Source: Chitinophagales bacterium (GTDB taxonomy: Bacteria; Bacteroidota; Bacteroidia; Chitinophagales; UBA2359). From it: DNA of 39,056 nucleotides. Within the stretch, counting starts at the first letter, position 1. Each line of letters opens with the position of its first letter. The stretch spans positions 1 through 39,056 of the forward strand of contig JAEUUX010000062.1 in NCBI GenBank assembly GCA_016787295.1. The letters are read 5' to 3'. Under the pieces are notes generated by a model. The model was given only the letters and a program-made list of their open reading frames with translations. It made no database searches and was not told where the DNA came from. Shown here in pieces: positions 8,883-39,056 of the stretch. The translations under genes and the position numbers were made by a program.

Positions 8883-9470
8883 ATCAACCCTTCGGGGGTT
8901 CAAAACATCTGAAAGATTTCAGCTTTTAACCCTTCGGGGTTTCAAAACCCCCGAAGGGTTACGCATAACGTTCGAAACATTACGCATAACATTCGCAAGA
9001 TTTCAAAAAACACCAGAAACACACTTCTTAGCAGTTGCGAGCATATAGATAGCATTATTTTTTGGGCGTTTCCCTGCGGGTCGGGCTTTGCGGGGCTTCG
9101 CTAACGCTTCGGTGCAAGCACCAGCCTAACGGCTGCCCCTACAATCCCTAACGCGCTTCGCCATTCGAACGCTTTACCGCAATACTTTTTTATTAATGGC
9201 GGGCTAACGCCCTTGCCTATCGCCTGCAACAACCTAATTTTTAACTCTTTGGGGGTTCAAAACCCCCGAAGGGTTAGGTATAACGTTCGAAGCATTACGT
9301 ATAACGTTCGCAAGATTCCAGCTTTTAACCCTTCGGGGGTTCGAAACTTCCGAAAGGTTTTAACGTTTAACCCTTCGGGGGTTCGAAACCCCCGAAGGGT
9401 TAGGTATAACGTTCGAAGCATTACGTATAACATTCGCAAGATTTCAAAAAACGCCCAAAACACTTTTGCT
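8883..9470. repeat. Cluster of GC-rich palindromic intergenic repeats
   Basis: The block contains several copies of a hairpin built from AACCCTTCGGGGGTT and its complement. The stems are at 8928-8939/8949-8960, 9243-9257/9261-9275, an imperfect one at 9327-9360, and a perfect 15-bp stem with a 3-nt loop at 9369-9383/9387-9401. Each full hairpin is followed by a tail with GTATAACGTTCGAAGCATTA-like sequence and then a TTCGCAAGATTTCAAAAAAC segment, so the composite unit is repeated on both sides of the 105-bp repeat at 9063-9170. Open frames here are repeat artefacts. It fills the whole 660-bp gap between the MBL and accC genes. Confidence 0.85.
9063..9170 (+). repeat. 105-bp dispersed repeat, copy A
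   Basis: This runs from TGGGCGTTTCCCTGCGGGTC to CGCGCTTCGCCATTCGAAC. It is more than 90% identical by eye to copies at 22335-22435 (reverse orientation), 26831-26936 and 30860-30966. It contains the local stems GGTGC/GCACC and CAGCC-TAAC-GGCTG (9122-9135), enclosed by GGGGC/GCCCC. Confidence 0.9.
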
Positions 9471-18926: not shown

Positions 18927-19392
18927 TATACTGAATTGAAAATACTTTTCGGATTTGATAATAGACGATGTCACGCACTCGTCCCCAAATGTAACATCAA
19001 TTAACGATCATTTGCCGTTCCTCCAAATGCTATTATCGTAAGTGACAAATGGTGATTCATCTTTTTTGCTCACCCAAACAGCAGCAAAAAAGGGTGTTCT
19101 TTTTTCGAGTGGATTCGTCCGGCGTGCTGCGGTCTTTGCTTAATTTTGTGGTAGCAAACAAAATCGTAGACATTTTGTCTATTTTATCGTATTAGCTACC
19201 ACAAAATGTAGGCAATCGTTGAGGCAGTTTATCTTTCTTTGTATATTTCTTCGTGACTTTCATGCCTCAACGACCGAAACAGCACTATTTCCGGTGACGA
19301 AAATAGTGTAAGCAGATGTGCGTTTTTTGTGACCGCAATTATTCGACTGTCAACATTTGACAAAATCCGAAGACTGTATTCAATTTAGTATA
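18927..19392 (-). mobile_element. MITE-like element, copy 1 (inverted relative to copies 2 and 3)
   Basis: The 466-bp unit begins TATACTGAATTGAAAATACT and ends in the complement of TATACTAAATTGAATACAGT. It is the reverse complement of the units at 37007-37471 and 38591-39056. The imperfect terminal inverted repeats extend over about 30 bp and both ends are TATA, consistent with TA target duplication as in IS630/Tc1-type elements (inference). No open frame of useful length exists, so it is non-autonomous. The interior has hairpins, including TTTTGTGGTAGC/GCTACCACAAAA. Confidence 0.85.
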
Positions 19393-19528: not shown

Positions 19529-19981
19529 TCATAGCTGATTAAGAACGTAATATTCCCCATCAACAATTTTCTGCTTTGTAACAGTAAAAATTGGGTTGGC
19601 AAATATTCTGTGAGTTATTGTATCAGGCATTAGAAAAATTACTTCTTGGTTTTTTACTCCTTCTACATTTGGAAAAACATCTTCGTGATAAATCACCTTA
19701 TTGGTATTATCCGTAAAAACTAATCTTCTTGCTACATCGACATAATAAGGATATTTCTGATTTAGTATCTGCTCTACCACCTCTAATGAGGCAGTTTCTC
19801 TAAATACATACAACTTACTCCATCTGAATGTAGTAAGTTGCGAAATATCGACTTGACAATTTTCGCTCTTGCAGTTTTTCTTTATTGAGGTAGCTATTTC
19901 GTTTTCTAATTTTCCGTTGCCATTGTTTAAACAACCTATAAAAAAGAAAAATGCTGCTATAAAAATTATTTGCTTCTTCAT
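19529..19981 (-). CDS. Small hypothetical lipoprotein
   Basis: The 150-residue protein has a lipoprotein signal (KKQIIFIAAFFFFIGC; lipidation at C17) and a mature domain of about 130 residues. Recognisable stretches are FRWSKLYVFRETASLEVVEQ and IYHEDVFPNVEGVKNQEVIF. I recall similar small lipoproteins of unknown function in Bacteroidota but no characterised homologue. It starts 39 bp after the vWA gene on the same strand and is probably co-transcribed with it. Its codon use and composition are more A/T-rich than the vWA gene, and it sits next to a MITE-like element, so it may be a late addition. Confidence 0.75.
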   Translation of the reverse strand: MKKQIIFIAAFFFFIGCLNNGNGKLENEIATSIKKNCKSENCQVDISQLTTFRWSKLYVFRETASLEVVEQILNQKYPYYVDVARRLVFTDNTNKVIYHEDVFPNVEGVKNQEVIFLMPDTITHRIFANPIFTVTKQKIVDGEYYVLNQL

Positions 19982-20020
19982 AGAATTGAGAAACCCATAA
20001 AATTTTTCGTAATGCTGTTT

Positions 20021-21313
20021 TTAGAATCCAATATAAAAACCTTTGTTTTCGCGTGCCAAATCGTTCATGAATTTCACACCTTTGTTGCTCATGTTTTCGT
20101 TGCGGAAATCGGAGCCAACACCAATACAGTTGATTACTCTGCCTGAATTTTTGGATTTGATGTCTGCTAAAACATCGGCAATATCATCATCGTCACAATC
20201 TAATTGCCCTACACGTTTGGTGGGTGCGCCATCGGAGAGGAGGATAATTGTTCCAGCAGCTTTGTAGGCGGGTTCATCGAGGACATAGTTCATTGCTTGG
20301 CGTGTGGGTGTACAGCCAAAGGCTTTGAGGCTACTCAAATAGCGATAGATGTCGTATTTTGTGCTTTCGGTGACGGTGGTAAGTTTACCATATTTATAAC
20401 CGTATTCTTCGGTTTTGCTTTTGGGAAAAATCACCACATCAACTTTATAGTTTTCGTCCATCGTTGCCACCATCATTTTTAGTCCAGCTTTTACTTGGTC
20501 TAATTTATCGGTTTCGGGAGCATCGTCCATACTGCCTGACAAGTCGACTACGAACACGACATTTTTGTCTTTGATATCAAAACCTGTTTTAGGATTTGGT
20601 TTGCAATCGGCAATTTGTTGTTGTTGGAGTTTGATGGTTTGATCTTTGGCTTTAATGGTTTCTTGAAGTTGTTTAATTTGTTCGGCGGTATTTTGGGTGA
20701 CTTCGGTTTGTGTTTTAAGTTTATCTTCTTGGTTTTTGATGGTCAGGAGTTGCTTGTTGACTTCTTCTTGCAGTTGCACCAATTGTTTTTCGAGTTCGCC
20801 TTTGTTTTCGAGGTTCTTTTTGATTTGTTCGTAGTCTTTGAGTTGTTCTTTCGTTACTTCGAGTTCGTTTTGCAATTTGTCGCGCTGTTCTTTGACTTCT
20901 ATCATTGTTTCAACGCTTTCTTTGGTTTTTGAATCCAAGGCGTTGAGTTCTTTTTCCAATTTATTGATACGATCTTGCAAAAATTGGCGCTGATTGTCGC
21001 ATTGTGCCAAGCTGTGTTGCAAGGACTCGATGCGTGCTTCCAAGTTTTTGGTAGTGTTTTGCACTTCCTTAAACTTTTGTTCCAATGGTTTGTAGACCGC
21101 TTCGGGAACCGATTTTTTGAGTTTGGCGAGCATACCGTCCATTTGAACGACTTGTTGTTTGAGTTCGTCCAATTGTTCGAGTTCCTCTAATTTATGTTTT
21201 ACGTCGCCTGTCAATTTAGGCACCATAATAAACAAAATGATCATGGCTCCAAGGGCTTTGGAGAATAGGATAAGAAATAAGTGATAATCGATATGTATTT
21301 CACGTCTTGCCAT
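20021..21313 (-). CDS. Membrane-anchored coiled-coil protein with von Willebrand A domain
   Basis: In this 430-residue protein, residues about 11-33 form one transmembrane segment (YHLFLILFSKALGAMIILFI). Residues 37-237 are an extended Glu/Lys/Gln-rich coiled coil. Residues 250-430 are a vWA domain with a complete MIDAS: DLSGS at 257-261, T335 in CTPTRQA and D361 in LLSDG. It should bind a divalent metal and a protein partner. There is no signal peptide beyond the anchor. It follows the PD-(D/E)XK-like gene by 60 bp and precedes the lipoprotein gene by 39 bp. A PP2C phosphatase gene lies nearby, a pairing known from TerY-type vWA/phosphatase/kinase modules, though no kinase is present here. 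Confidence 0.85.
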   Translation of the reverse strand: MARREIHIDYHLFLILFSKALGAMIILFIMVPKLTGDVKHKLEELEQLDELKQQVVQMDGMLAKLKKSVPEAVYKPLEQKFKEVQNTTKNLEARIESLQHSLAQCDNQRQFLQDRINKLEKELNALDSKTKESVETMIEVKEQRDKLQNELEVTKEQLKDYEQIKKNLENKGELEKQLVQLQEEVNKQLLTIKNQEDKLKTQTEVTQNTAEQIKQLQETIKAKDQTIKLQQQQIADCKPNPKTGFDIKDKNVVFVVDLSGSMDDAPETDKLDQVKAGLKMMVATMDENYKVDVVIFPKSKTEEYGYKYGKLTTVTESTKYDIYRYLSSLKAFGCTPTRQAMNYVLDEPAYKAAGTIILLSDGAPTKRVGQLDCDDDDIADVLADIKSKNSGRVINCIGVGSDFRNENMSNKGVKFMNDLARENKGFYIGF

Positions 21314-21373
21314 TGGCTATTTGTTTAGCGTTTTTTTTATGATGAAATGCGCGCGCGAATAGTAGATGGGTGT

Positions 21374-22018
21374 TTAGTTGGTGTGTAAGATGAGGTTTTT
21401 TAGTGCTTTTAATATGTGTATAATATTGATGAGGTCGTGGGTTTGTGTAGCATCATACGTTCTACTGAAACAGTAGGAGGTGTCATGCAAAGTAGTAAAA
21501 GTCCATTGTTTGCCTTGTACATAACAACCATAAATGGGTTGTTTATTGGCGTTTTGTTGTTGAGCAATCAGCATGGCTACCAACATTTGTCCTTCTGCGT
21601 CGTCGTTGGTGTTTTTGCTTTTTTTAAATTCTTGCAGAAAAAAATAAGGTGTTTGTGGTGTATTGATACCAAAAGGACGAGCTATCATGGCATCACACAC
21701 AACCGACAGTGGAGTGTCTTGCACCACTCCTGATAGCGCACGTTCATAAAATACTTTGGCTTTTTGGGGTATTTCTAGGTCGGCATAATCTATTACAAAA
21801 CTCAAAAAGTGCATTTTTAGTTCTTCTTCATTCCAGACATCGCCTTCTAAAAAAAGTTTTTGGCGTTTGGTTTCTAAAAAATTGGGTAGATGATACAGGG
21901 GTGCTACGACGACATTGAGCCAATGGGTAAGTATATCACATTCGACTCCGCGCACCAACCCAAAGTGTCCTACTATTTGGTCTATTGCATATCGTTGTTT
22001 TTTTATATCTAATTTCAT
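21374..22018 (-). CDS. PD-(D/E)XK-like protein of unknown role
   Basis: This is a 214-residue protein from the ATG at 22018 (MKLDIKKQRYAIDQIVGHFG). An in-frame ATG 21 bases upstream is also possible. A D109...E130-x-K132 arrangement (VCDAMIA, then PYFFLQEFKKSK) followed by DAEGQMLVAMLIAQQ fits the core strand-strand-helix of the PD-(D/E)XK nuclease-like superfamily. The tail PIYGCYVQGKQWTFTTL, then an IIHILKALKNLI helix, resembles a common uncharacterised Bacteroidota/cyanobacterial family. The family call comes from motif spacing only, so nuclease activity is an inference. It is the first gene of the minus-strand cluster with the vWA protein and lipoprotein. Confidence 0.6.
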   Translation of the reverse strand: MKLDIKKQRYAIDQIVGHFGLVRGVECDILTHWLNVVVAPLYHLPNFLETKRQKLFLEGDVWNEEELKMHFLSFVIDYADLEIPQKAKVFYERALSGVVQDTPLSVVCDAMIARPFGINTPQTPYFFLQEFKKSKNTNDDAEGQMLVAMLIAQQQNANKQPIYGCYVQGKQWTFTTLHDTSYCFSRTYDATQTHDLINIIHILKALKNLILHTN

Positions 22019-22084
22019 ACAAAAGTTATTTGACCTCAAAAAAGTTTTGAGCTAATTTGCGGTTACAGGTTGTTTCTTTGTGCG

Positions 22085-22092
22085 CAAAAGTA
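22085..22092 (-). promoter_or_regulatory. Putative -7 element of the PD-(D/E)XK-like/vWA cluster
   Basis: On the minus strand TACTTTTG matches TAnnTTTG, 67 bases upstream of the chosen start. No convincing -33 element was found. Confidence 0.4.
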
Positions 22093-22218
22093 CACAAAAT
22101 AGTTCGAAAATATGGCACATTCCTGCAAAAAACGCTACTTTTGTGAAAAAAATGTGGTTTTTTGTAGGAAAAGCTAAAAGATTTTGCGACTTGTTGTGCA
22201 AAGATACAACTTTTTTGC

Positions 22219-22226
22219 TACCTTTG
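22219..22226 (+). promoter_or_regulatory. Second plus-strand -7-like element
   Basis: TACCTTTG lies on the plus strand with TTG at 22194-22196, 22 bases upstream. It faces the 105-bp repeat copy B and is more than 550 bases from the next gene. It may drive an unrecognised transcript or be chance. Confidence 0.25.
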
Positions 22227-22334
22227 TGGTGTTTTTTATTCAAAAAATGCTGTGTGGTTTTATTCGTTGTATTTAGTGACGATAGGAAAAAGGCTTTAGC
22301 CTGTTTTAAAAAAGTATTGGGTACAAAAGTTTGA

Positions 22335-22435
22335 GTGGCGAAGCGCGTTAGGGATTGTAGGGGCAGCCGTTAGGCTGGTGCTTGCACCGAAGCAAAGCGA
22401 AGCCCCGTAAAGCCCGACCCGCAGGGGAACGCCCA
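22335..22435 (-). repeat. 105-bp dispersed repeat, copy B
   Basis: This is the reverse-oriented copy of the repeat at 9063-9170. It has GCTTCGCTTTGCTTCGG where copy A has GCTTCGCTAACGCTTCGG, and keeps the CAGCC/GGCTG stem. It lies in the 776-bp gap between the vWA cluster and the PP2C gene. Confidence 0.9.
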
Positions 22436-22576
22436 ACTAATTATTGCTGTCATAATGACTCTAATTGGCGTTGTTAGTGGTGGTTAGAGGATTTAATAAT
22501 GGGCGAGTTTTGTAAGAATTTGTAATAAAACCCCAAAAGTATTGACACAAAATAAGATTAAGTACAAAAATAGTAG

Positions 22577-22584
22577 TACCTTTG
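22577..22584 (+). promoter_or_regulatory. Putative -7 element of the PP2C gene
   Basis: TACCTTTG matches TAnnTTTG and would give a leader of about 200 nt before the ATG at 22795. No -33 element at normal spacing is visible. Confidence 0.4.
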
Positions 22585-22794
22585 GCGCAGTTTTTGCTAA
22601 TTATGGGGCTAAAATGTTTTTTGACCCTATTTTAGGTCAACTTTTTGCTATATTCTTGCCGCTTTTCTTGTTATTTTTGAATGTTCACTATTGGTTAAGT
22701 TTTTGCTATTTGTGTTACAGTTAACGAAATGATAGCCTTCCACACACTAATGGGCTATCCCACCAATTTATTGTTCATGTTTTCTCACTAAGCT

Positions 22795-24204
22795 ATGGCA
22801 ATTCAAATTCAACAAATTGCGTTTTTGAACGAAAAAGGCAAACGAAAGAACAACGAAGACAACATTATGCCTTTGGGTAGCAGCGCATCGTCCGATACCA
22901 AACTGTTTTTGGTGTGTGACGGCGTAGGTGGTGCCAACAAAGGCGAAGTAGCTTCTTTATTGGTCTGCCAAAATTTCGATGCTTTTTTTCAGCAACACCC
23001 CAATCGCACTGTCGATGCGCAGTATTTGCATGATGCCCTTCGGTATGTAGAAGGCAAATTGAGCGAATACGCCAACGAACACAGCGAGTGCGCGGGTATG
23101 GCAACCACTCTCACCCTGCTCTATCTCGATGATGTCAATCAGCGTGCTGTCATTGCTTGGTGCGGTGATAGTCGGGTGTATCATATACGCGACAAAGAAG
23201 TGCTGTTTGTGACCTCCGACCACTCGTTGGTCAACGAATTGGTGAAACGCGGCGAAATTACTGCCGAAGAAGCCCACAAACACCCACAACGCAATGTGAT
23301 TTTGCGCGCCATTTCGGGCAAAGAAACCCCCACCTCCATCGACATCTATGAAACTTCCGATTTGCGGCAGCATGACTATTTCTTGCTTTGCAGCGATGGT
23401 ATTTTGGAGAGCATAGACGAGAGAATCCTTACCACTCTGTTGCCCAATACCACTATCAATACCGAACAAAAAAAGGATTTGATAAGGGAAATGTGCGATA
23501 TGAACTCCAATGACAACTTCTCGATGTATCTTATCGAGTTGGGAGAGGTGAGCCAACCCAGCCCGCAAGCTACTACCAAACCCATCGAACCCCTAAGTAC
23601 AGCAGAGGTCAACAAACCCACTTCGGCTCCCATAGATACAACGCTGATTAGCCAAATTCCACCCGCCATTGACGATAATAGCGCAGGTAGCACCAAATTT
23701 GTCTATCTATTGGTCACAGCCGCTATCCTGGCGTTGGGCGTATTGGGTTTTGTGCAGTGGAAAAACAACAAAGCCGCCGAAGCCTTGAACGAACAAATAC
23801 AACAAGCCAAAACATGGAGCGAAAGTGGTGACCTTGCCTCTTTGATGCGTGCCGACTCTTTGCTACAGGCGTTGCAGAAACACGAACCGCAAGACTCGAG
23901 TATCGCTAATTTGTTGACACAAGTGGAACTAAAAATTAGTGAACAAAAAGGAGTGGTTTGGCAAGATTCGTTGCGCGCACACGTCCAACAAAAATGGAAC
24001 AATGCCGACGACTCTATTGTCTTTAAACGCCTAAAATATAGCCTTGTGTTATTAGACAGTTTTGTTAATAGCAAAGATAGTCTACAATTGCAAATAGCTT
24101 TTGCAAAAATAGATTCTGCTATCCAAAGGCGCGACTCCATTAAAGCAAGTTTGCAAGCACCAGCAAAACCTGCAAAACCTGTTGTAAAAGATAGTATTCA
24201 GTAA
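22795..24204 (+). CDS. Membrane-anchored PP2C-family serine/threonine phosphatase
   Basis: In this 469-residue protein, residues 1-250 form a PP2C/PPM phosphatase domain. The metal-binding motifs are NED (20-22), CDGVGG (41-46), GDSR (124-127), SDG (200-202) and DN (240-241, with Ser where DNxT usually has Thr at the end). A Pro/Thr-rich linker (about 253-300) leads to one transmembrane helix (FVYLLVTAAILALGVLGFVQ, 302-321). A Lys/Gln/Asp-rich C-terminal part of about 145 residues would lie on the other side of the membrane. It should remove phosphate from Ser/Thr of cytoplasmic proteins. No Ser/Thr kinase gene is in the window. The neighbouring divergent cluster encodes a vWA protein, hinting at a common signalling role. 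Confidence 0.9.
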   Translation: MAIQIQQIAFLNEKGKRKNNEDNIMPLGSSASSDTKLFLVCDGVGGANKGEVASLLVCQNFDAFFQQHPNRTVDAQYLHDALRYVEGKLSEYANEHSECAGMATTLTLLYLDDVNQRAVIAWCGDSRVYHIRDKEVLFVTSDHSLVNELVKRGEITAEEAHKHPQRNVILRAISGKETPTSIDIYETSDLRQHDYFLLCSDGILESIDERILTTLLPNTTINTEQKKDLIREMCDMNSNDNFSMYLIELGEVSQPSPQATTKPIEPLSTAEVNKPTSAPIDTTLISQIPPAIDDNSAGSTKFVYLLVTAAILALGVLGFVQWKNNKAAEALNEQIQQAKTWSESGDLASLMRADSLLQALQKHEPQDSSIANLLTQVELKISEQKGVVWQDSLRAHVQQKWNNADDSIVFKRLKYSLVLLDSFVNSKDSLQLQIAFAKIDSAIQRRDSIKASLQAPAKPAKPVVKDSIQ

Positions 24205-26707: not shown

Positions 26708-26830
26708 CAAAGTTTTATATAGTTTTTGTCACTGAGGTTTGTTTTTGACGAAAATAGTCCTTTTGGTCAAGTAAATGGATAAAAAAAAGCAAAATCTCCC
26801 ATACAAAATGGCAGATAAATGATATAAATT

Positions 26831-26936
26831 TGGGCGTTCCCCTGCGGGTCGGGCTTTACGGGGCTTCGCTTCGCTTCGGTGCAAGCACCAGCCTAACGGC
26901 TGCCCCTACAATCCCTAACGCGCTTCGCCACTCGAC
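26831..26936 (+). repeat. 105-bp dispersed repeat, copy C
   Basis: This has the same orientation as copy A and is closest to copy B (GTTCCCCTGCGGG, GCTTCGCTTCGCTTCGG). The CAGCC-TAAC-GGCTG stem is conserved. It fills most of the gap between the TonB receptor and lgt genes. Confidence 0.9.
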
Positions 26937-30748: not shown

Positions 30749-30859
30749 TACTTTTGTGGATAAAAAAGAGAAAATTAGCAATTTTTTGCAATAAAATAGA
30801 CAAAAAAAAGCAAAAGTAGCTACTGTCCCATGTAGATTATTTAGTCGAATACATTTTTT

Positions 30860-30966
30860 TGGGCGTTTCCCTGCGGGTCGGGCTTTACGGGGCTTCGCTA
30901 ACGCTACGGTGCAAGCACCTGCCTAACGGCAGCCCCTACAATCCCTAACGCGCTTCGCCCTTCGAA
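30860..30966 (+). repeat. 105-bp dispersed repeat, copy D
   Basis: This has the same orientation as copies A and C. It differs from the others in the local stem: CTGCC-TAAC-GGCAG (30919-30932) replaces CAGCC-TAAC-GGCTG, a double change that keeps the pairing. Confidence 0.9.
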
Positions 30967-37006: not shown

Positions 37007-37471
37007 TATACTAAATTGAATACAGTCTTCGGATTTTGTAAAATGTTGACAGGCTAATAATTGCGGTCACAAAAATGTACAGATGCCTACACTATTTTCG
37101 CTGTCCGAAATAGTGCTGTTTCGGTCGTTGAGGCACCGAAGTCACGAAAAAAACAGACAAAGAATGATAAATTGCCTCAACGATTGCCTACATTTTGTGG
37201 TAGCTAATGTGGAAAAACAGACAAAAAGCCTACGATTTCGCTTGCTACCACAAAATTAAGCAAAGACCACAGCACGCCGGACGAATCCACTCGAAAAAGA
37301 ACACCTTTTTTTGCTAATTTTTGGGTGAGCAAAAAAGCAGAATCACCCTTTGTTGCTTACGATAATAGTATTTCGAGGAACAGCAAATGGTCGTTAATTG
37401 ATGTTACATTTTGGAGAGAGTGAGTAACATCGTCTATTGTCAAATCCGAAAAGTATTTTCAATTCAGTATA
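37007..37471 (+). mobile_element. MITE-like element, copy 2
   Basis: The 465-bp unit starts TATACTAAATTGAATACAGT and ends in the complement of TATACTGAATTGAAAATACT. It is a direct repeat of the unit at 38591-39056 and inverted relative to 18927-19392. Internal palindromes include CACTATTT...AAATAGTG, TCGTTGAGGCA (37125-37135)/TGCCTCAACGA (37173-37183) and ATTTTGTGGTAGC/GCTACCACAAAAT. No open frame is usable. It ends 29 bp before the AAA gene. Confidence 0.85.
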
Positions 37472-38580: not shown

Positions 38581-38590
38581 AAAACTGTTA

Positions 38591-39056
38591 TATACTAAAT
38601 TGAATACAGTATTCGGATTTTGTAAGATGTTGACAGCCGAATAATTGTGGTCACAAAAACGTGCCTCTACCTACACTATTTTCGTCACCCGAAATAGTGC
38701 TGTAGTCGGTCGTTGGGGCACCGAAGTCACGAAAAAACAGACAAAGAATGATAAATTGCCTCAACGATTGCCTACATTTTGTGGTAGCTAATGTGGAAAA
38801 ACAGACAAAATGCCTGCGATTTTTCTTGCTACCACAAAATTAAGCAAAGACCACAGCACGCCTGACGAATCCACTCGAAAAAGAACACCTTTTTTTGCTA
38901 CTTTTTTGGGTGAGCAAAAAAGTAGAATCACCATTTGATGCTTACGATAATAGTATTTCGAGGAATGGTAAATTGCTGTTAATTGATGTTACATCTTGGG
39001 ACGAGTGCATGACATCGTCTATTATCAAATCCGAAAAGTATTTTCAATTCAGTATA
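38591..39056 (+). mobile_element. MITE-like element, copy 3
   Basis: The 466-bp unit runs from TATACTAAATTGAATACAGT to a terminal CAATTCAGTATA that coincides with the window's end. It is in the same orientation as copy 2 and about 90% identical to it by eye. The 13-bp internal stem ATTTTGTGGTAGC (38776-38788)/GCTACCACAAAAT (38828-38840) is perfect. Sequence beyond the window would show the right target site. Confidence 0.85.

What the first reader, a model, noticed from the sequence alone, without database searches (positions are those of the whole stretch)
19529..24204. Candidate module: PD-(D/E)XK-like protein, coiled-coil vWA protein, lipoprotein and membrane PP2C
A minus-strand cluster with 60- and 39-bp gaps encodes a putative PD-(D/E)XK-fold protein, a transmembrane coiled-coil vWA protein with full MIDAS, and a small lipoprotein. 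A membrane-anchored PP2C phosphatase lies next to it, divergent. vWA plus PP2C is the core of known phosphorylation modules (TerY-type), but here the kinase is missing and a nuclease-like protein and lipoprotein are present. The cluster is bordered by mobile/repeat DNA. This is the best candidate for an undescribed membrane signalling or defence module.
Basis: inference. Interest (0 to 1): 0.6.

Follow-up and report, generated by a model that had tools for sequence, protein, structure and literature searches.

The report
Half of a split envelope signalling system
Two of the four reported genes (a membrane vWA rod protein and a PP2C phosphatase) are a conserved pair whose relatives sit with a proton-channel protein, kinases and phosphate-reading proteins, while the nuclease-like gene and the small lipoprotein gene beside them look like unrelated neighbours.

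Summary
The four genes are real and at the stated coordinates, but they are not a four-gene module. vWA and PP2C form a conserved divergent pair (14 of 16 family-type loci). The PD-(D/E)XK-like gene is one of 38 scattered matches in this genome; the lipoprotein is in none of 19 relatives; neither occurs in the homologous vWA loci. The vWA protein has an N-terminal MotB/ExbD/TolR-type pore helix, a long helical rod and a C-terminal vWA domain. In other Bacteroidota the same vWA gene lies by a MotA/TolQ/ExbB gene (16 of 17 loci), with kinase (16) and PP2C (14) within 7 kb. The 'missing' kinase is elsewhere in this genome beside a zinc-ribbon FHA gene, and the channel gene is at a third place. 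A 2025 paper describes pore-helix vWA proteins paired with TolQ; its text has no kinase. The window copy has lost the pore aspartate kept by all 78 other aligned loci: an uncoupled or decaying derivative. The mechanism is inferred; no defence role was shown.

The parts
20021..21313 (-). vWA protein, 430 aa: pore-type N-terminal helix, long helical rod, C-terminal vWA domain with intact MIDAS
   Evidence: Pfam VWA; alignments; AlphaFold2 model pLDDT 74.6 with helix 10-29, long helix to 230, vWA 251-430; Foldseek vWA matches
21221..21292 (-). pore-type (transpore) helix segment, residues 8-31
   Evidence: aligned to SFLDLLSGALGA-type helices; 7 of 17 family-conserved columns changed in the window copy
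21269..21271 (-). codon 15: Ile where the other aligned loci have the proton-binding-type Asp
   Evidence: 78 of 78 other distinct aligned loci have Asp
22795..24204 (+). PP2C phosphatase with one transmembrane helix, divergent from vWA
   Evidence: PP2C_2 48.3 bits, cut-off 24; NCBIfam Stp1/IreP-type 4.8e-58 but below that model's cut-off; conserved neighbour of vWA
21374..22018 (-). PD-(D/E)XK-like protein, 214 aa; judged a bystander
   Evidence: 38 matches in own genome; no such ORF in 79 vWA loci; PADLOC PD_DExK
19529..19981 (-). small lipoprotein-like protein, 150 aa; judged a bystander
   Evidence: 0 of 19 relatives; no relative among the ORFs of the loci fetched by then
22333..22436 (+). 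104-bp dispersed repeat in the widened vWA-PP2C gap
   Evidence: 40 matches scored of 260 candidates in own genome
18927..19392 (.). ~465-bp repeat element with 30-bp inverted ends (MITE-like), downstream border
   Evidence: inverted arms; 40 candidates scored of 168, nearly all near-full-length matches

Best explanation
The vWA and PP2C genes are one part of a split envelope system. Shown by sequence: relatives carry a MotA/TolQ/ExbB channel protein, a vWA protein whose N-terminal helix has the Asp of MotB/ExbD/TolR-type pore helices, Ser/Thr kinases, FHA proteins and a PP2C, together in one stretch in other Bacteroidota. In this family they lie at two places (vWA/PP2C; kinase/zinc-ribbon-FHA/channel) and in this genome at three. 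Inferred: five channel subunits hold two vWA pore helices, proton flow turns or pulls the long periplasmic rod, and its vWA domain grips an envelope partner through the MIDAS metal; kinase, FHA protein and PP2C switch the complex or report its state by phosphorylation. Inferred for the window: with Asp15 gone and a Lys at 19 in the helix, its vWA protein no longer takes part in proton coupling and acts as a static anchored sensor, or is decaying. The PD-(D/E)XK gene and the lipoprotein are bystanders.
For: PP2C beside vWA in 14 of 16 family-type loci; channel beside vWA in 16 of 17 other-Bacteroidota loci with kinase in 16 and PP2C in 14 within 7 kb; channel beside vWA in 45 of 46 remaining loci. 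G016 has kinase, channel, vWA, FHA/trypsin, secreted protein and PP2C in one run. In the family the channel follows a zinc-ribbon FHA gene in 9 of 10 genomes, with a kinase before that in 7 of the 9. Own genome: channel at C170 (MotA_ExbB 5.9e-14), kinase (5.8e-49) and FHA protein (4.2e-13) together at C240. The pore-helix Asp and partnership with TolQ-like proteins are described in PMC12204202.
Against: The window copy lacks the Asp, so it cannot be a normal motor part. Channel and vWA are not neighbours in any of the 16 family-type loci. 3 of 12 same-family relatives lack a clear vWA match and 3 of 12 a clear channel match, not all the same ones; five of the six cases are in genomes at most 90% complete... 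completeness 68-90%. Non-Bacteroidota relatives show no nearby kinase or PP2C, so phospho-control is not general. Kinase and PP2C labels come from small profiles built here and show class, not orthology. No complex was modelled and no function was tested.
Confidence: 0.6

Rival explanations
1. The first reader's module: the nuclease-like protein, vWA, lipoprotein and PP2C act together as a membrane signalling or defence unit.
For: Short same-strand gaps of 39 and 60 bp, so the three minus-strand genes may be co-transcribed.
Against: Nuclease-like gene: 38 matches at varied places in this genome and none in 79 vWA loci. Lipoprotein in 0 of 19 relatives.
Confidence: 0.04
2. vWA and PP2C are a regulatory pair of their own in this family; their tie to the channel, kinase and FHA protein was lost when the operon split, so the locus no longer works with them.
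For: 0 of 16 family-type loci have the channel or kinase nearby; in the own genome even the channel has left the kinase/FHA place.
Against: 10 of 10 other vWA proteins found with the window protein keep the pore Asp, which is pointless without a channel; the channel is kept in 9 of 12 same-family relatives.
Confidence: 0.15
3. The system is simply decaying in the window lineage and the vWA gene is a pseudogene in the making.
For: Changed pore helix (7 of 17 conserved columns), moved channel gene, insertion of another gene and a repeat into the shared promoter region.
Against: The vWA domain keeps 55 of 57 conserved columns, the MIDAS is intact, PP2C, kinase and FHA proteins show few changes at invariant positions, all frames are open.
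Confidence: 0.2
4. A TerY-P triad variant (vWA, PP2C, kinase with zinc ribbon).
For: vWA, PP2C, kinase and a zinc-ribbon-like protein all exist in the genome.
Against: The vWA protein is membrane-anchored with a long rod and a pore-type helix; the kinase is not fused to a zinc ribbon, the Cys-rich N-terminus sits on an FHA protein instead (definition read in PMC11090510); no kinase is adjacent.
Confidence: 0.04

Closest known systems
Transpore-helix vWA proteins paired with TolQ-like genes (PMC12204202, 2025)
   Same: N-terminal pore-type helix then a vWA domain; TolQ/MotA/ExbB-type neighbour in most relatives; Asp in the helix of the relatives
   Different: Linked to kinase, FHA and PP2C in Bacteroidota; single rather than paired vWA gene; partner gene at another place; the window copy has lost the Asp
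TerY-P triad (vWA, PP2C, kinase-zinc ribbon; passages of PMC11090510)
   Same: The three protein classes
   Different: Membrane rod with pore-type helix, no kinase-zinc-ribbon fusion, genes apart in this genome
Zorya ZorA/ZorB motor (recalled)
   Same: A MotA-type channel protein with a single-helix partner; channel proteins match ZorA models weakly (6.6e-06 and 4.1e-05)
   Different: Partner ends in vWA, not in an OmpA-like domain (recalled); no ZorC or ZorD looked for or seen
PADLOC PD_DExK / PD-(D/E)XK nuclease superfamily (the bystander gene)
   Same: 25 of 25 members match; D, E, K and Q positions invariant or nearly so
   Different: Stand-alone and scattered in one genome; hardly covered by Pfam (2 of 25)

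Membership tests
Transpore-helix vWA with TolQ | N-terminal membrane helix followed by a vWA domain | tested here: met
   Sequence and model; homologous helix in the relatives
Transpore-helix vWA with TolQ | Proton-binding Asp in the pore helix | tested here: not met
   Ile in the window copy; Asp in 78 of 78 other aligned loci
Transpore-helix vWA with TolQ | Adjacent tolQ-like gene | tested here: not met
   Not adjacent in the window or in the 16 family-type loci; adjacent in 61 of the 63 other loci; partner elsewhere in the own genome
Transpore-helix vWA with TolQ | vWA genes mostly in heterologous pairs | tested here: not met
   A pore-helix query finds a single copy in the own genome
TerY-P triad | Kinase with C-terminal zinc ribbon next to vWA and PP2C | tested here: not met
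   No kinase in the cluster; the C240 kinase has no zinc-ribbon match in Pfam
TerY-P triad | TerY-like vWA clade | not tested
   No tree was built
PD-(D/E)XK nuclease superfamily (bystander gene) | D...ExK motif | tested here: met
   K132 invariant, D109 and E130 at 90% or more over 25 members; one copy has Ala for Glu (L212_04)
PD-(D/E)XK nuclease superfamily (bystander gene) | Nuclease core fold | tested here: inconclusive
   Single-sequence model pLDDT 36.3
PP2C phosphatase | PP2C domain above curated cut-off | tested here: met
   PF13672 48.3 bits, cut-off 24

The most novel reading that the evidence does not exclude
A proton-driven 5:2 motor whose output rod ends in a vWA domain is controlled by reversible Ser/Thr phosphorylation (kinase, FHA readers, PP2C) in Bacteroidota; in the window lineage the motor helix has lost its proton-binding Asp while phosphatase, kinase, FHA reader and vWA head stay intact, turning a motor into a static envelope sensor.
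Probability: 0.25. Interest if true: 0.75.

Novelty: new variant of a known kind. Interest (0 to 1): 0.5.

Why it matters
Proton-driven envelope motors are known from flagella, Ton, Tol, gliding and Zorya (recalled), but control of one by eukaryote-like Ser/Thr phosphorylation would be a new layer. The gene set makes that testable in cultured Bacteroidota (one listed record is Bacteroides sp. 519, L181). The window supplies a natural variant of the pore helix for comparison. The result also corrects a plausible but wrong four-gene defence module.

Tried and rejected
Four-gene module: rejected on neighbourhoods. Mobile spread of the nuclease-like gene: no shared partner family in the fetched neighbourhoods, closest paralogue 64% identical, no relative in viral contigs; not tested further. 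Structure of the nuclease-like protein: one single-sequence job, uninformative; Pfam, PHROGs and PDB profile searches gave little. Frameshift as the cause of the altered pore helix: I read the other two frames by eye, not with a tool, and neither gives the consensus. Second pore-helix vWA in the genome: none found. Defence: the vWA PADLOC hits lie in the coiled coil, the kinase hits are to many kinase models at once. Phylum-wide sample: 4 of 395 genomes, the own one included, match at E <= 1e-15; only four candidates were scored in each genome listed, so rarity is not firmly measured. The PDB sequence search with the vWA alignment gave mainly coiled coils. Grouping is by record title; L155 is titled only 'bacterium' and was put with Bacteroidota by gene order, which is circular for that one locus. 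One scan pattern was DLLSGALGA, which favours Asp-bearing loci; the set does not have that bias.

Full report
Check.

The two bystanders. The nuclease-like protein has 38 matches in its own genome including itself; the others are at most 64% identical and some are fragments. I fetched 26 stretches of the own genome holding 30 such ORFs, leaving six weaker matches unfetched; no other family clustered across these stretches has more than four members, and the genes up- and downstream vary in size, strand and distance. A profile of the family finds no ORF in the 79 vWA loci. The lipoprotein is found only in its own genome (0 of 19 relatives). In the family the vWA-PP2C gap is 107-529 bp in the 14 loci that have the pair; in the window it is 1481 bp and holds the nuclease-like gene and a 104-bp repeat.

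The conserved pair. The vWA search gave clear matches in 9 of 12 same-family relatives. PP2C is its divergent neighbour in 7 of these 9; in G004 and G005 the best PP2C match is on another contig. In the set of named records it is next to vWA in 14 of 16 (L138 is cut by its contig end, L139 has a different gene there). The two sets overlap: several records are the same contigs (for example L138 and G004:C495, by length and sequence position).

What the vWA protein is. In G016, from another family of the order, the gene lies in a run kinase - MotA/TolQ/ExbB - vWA - FHA/trypsin - secreted - PP2C. The channel protein has strong matches in 9 of 12 same-family relatives and in the own genome at C170:62412-63128. 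In 9 of 10 family genomes it follows a zinc-ribbon FHA gene, preceded by a kinase in 7 of those 9 (L116 starts at its contig end). In the own genome kinase and FHA gene are together at C240 without the channel. Pfam confirms the three domains in the own genome; the zinc ribbon of the family's FHA protein is my reading of its CxxC pairs, no Pfam zinc-ribbon model matched it there, while the L181 counterpart matches zinc-ribbon models and FHA.

Wider set. A scan of genome contigs with the 11-sequence alignment gave 79 loci. Channel beside vWA: 45 of 46 in the remaining group, mostly Bacteriovoracales and relatives by title, without a kinase or PP2C; 16 of 17 in other Bacteroidota, with a kinase within 7 kb in 16 and PP2C in 14; none in the 16 family-type loci. 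The kinase and PP2C labels come from small profiles built here, so they show class, not orthology. One scan pattern was DLLSGALGA, which favours finding the Asp; the 10 others found with the window protein itself also all have it.

The window variant. At the Asp column 78 of 78 other distinct loci have Asp and the window has Ile; one more row (L088) repeats L138 and is not counted, and L153 could not be placed but shows the Asp by eye. In the helix 7 of 17 columns conserved in the family are changed in the window, against 0 or 1 in the 17 other rows; in the vWA domain 2 of 57, against 0 to 5 of 56-61 in the others. Measured over all 80 rows with the stricter set of 12 conserved helix columns, the window changes two (Asp15, Gly19) and the others at most one. 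The channel partner has 11 of 81 invariant positions changed, close to G010 with 10 of 80, and keeps its pore-region threonines (by eye). No second pore helix of this family was found in the genome.

Model. AlphaFold2 gives helix 10-29, a long helix to 230 and a confident vWA domain; the first 40 residues have low confidence. Foldseek finds vWA-type domains.

Literature. PMC12204202 (section 8 and passages read) proposes pore-helix vWA proteins as direct partners of TolQ-like pentamers; the word kinase does not occur in its main text. PMC11090510 (passages) defines TerY-P. Of the other papers I saw only search listings with abstract starts. Searches joining vWA with ExbB, ExbD, TolQ, FHA, kinase or phosphatase terms listed no paper that, by title and abstract start, treats a phosphorylation-linked vWA motor; the library lacks most subscription papers, so this is weak evidence of novelty.

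Verdict. Composition and split are shown; the motor and its phospho-control are inferred; defence is unsupported. The window copy should not be filed as a working member of the pore-helix vWA family, since the Asp test fails.

Noticed in passing
window 21374-22018 and 37 other places in G000: A stand-alone PD-(D/E)XK-like family with 38 matches in one genome, hardly covered by Pfam (2 of 25 members), with diverged paralogues, some fragments, beside varied genes; also 22 matches in G004.
   Followed up: partly
window 18927-19392, 37007-37471, 38588-39056: A ~465-bp repeat with 30-bp inverted ends (TATACTGAATTG-type); 40 of 168 candidate places in the genome were scored and matched at 87% identity or more.
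   Followed up: partly
window 22333-22436, 26830-26933, 9062-9166, 30859-30959: A 104-bp G+C-rich dispersed repeat; 40 of 260 candidates in the genome were scored and matched. Two copies, 99% alike and inverted, flank the PP2C and TonB-receptor genes 4.4 kb apart, a possible inversion site.
   Followed up: partly
L114 10407-12895 (G000:C170): In the own genome the channel gene lies by two genes (L114_13, L114_14) that look by eye like further PD-(D/E)XK or HsdR-N-type proteins, not by kinase and FHA gene as in relatives.
   Followed up: no
L181 11649-14167 and similar loci: Other-Bacteroidota operons carry an FHA plus trypsin-like protein and a 260-300 aa protein without Pfam match before PP2C; their roles are open.
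   Followed up: partly
46 loci outside the two Bacteroidota groups (such as L140, L143, L144): Predatory-type Bdellovibrio relatives carry the channel and a shorter vWA protein without the long rod, and no nearby kinase or PP2C.
   Followed up: no
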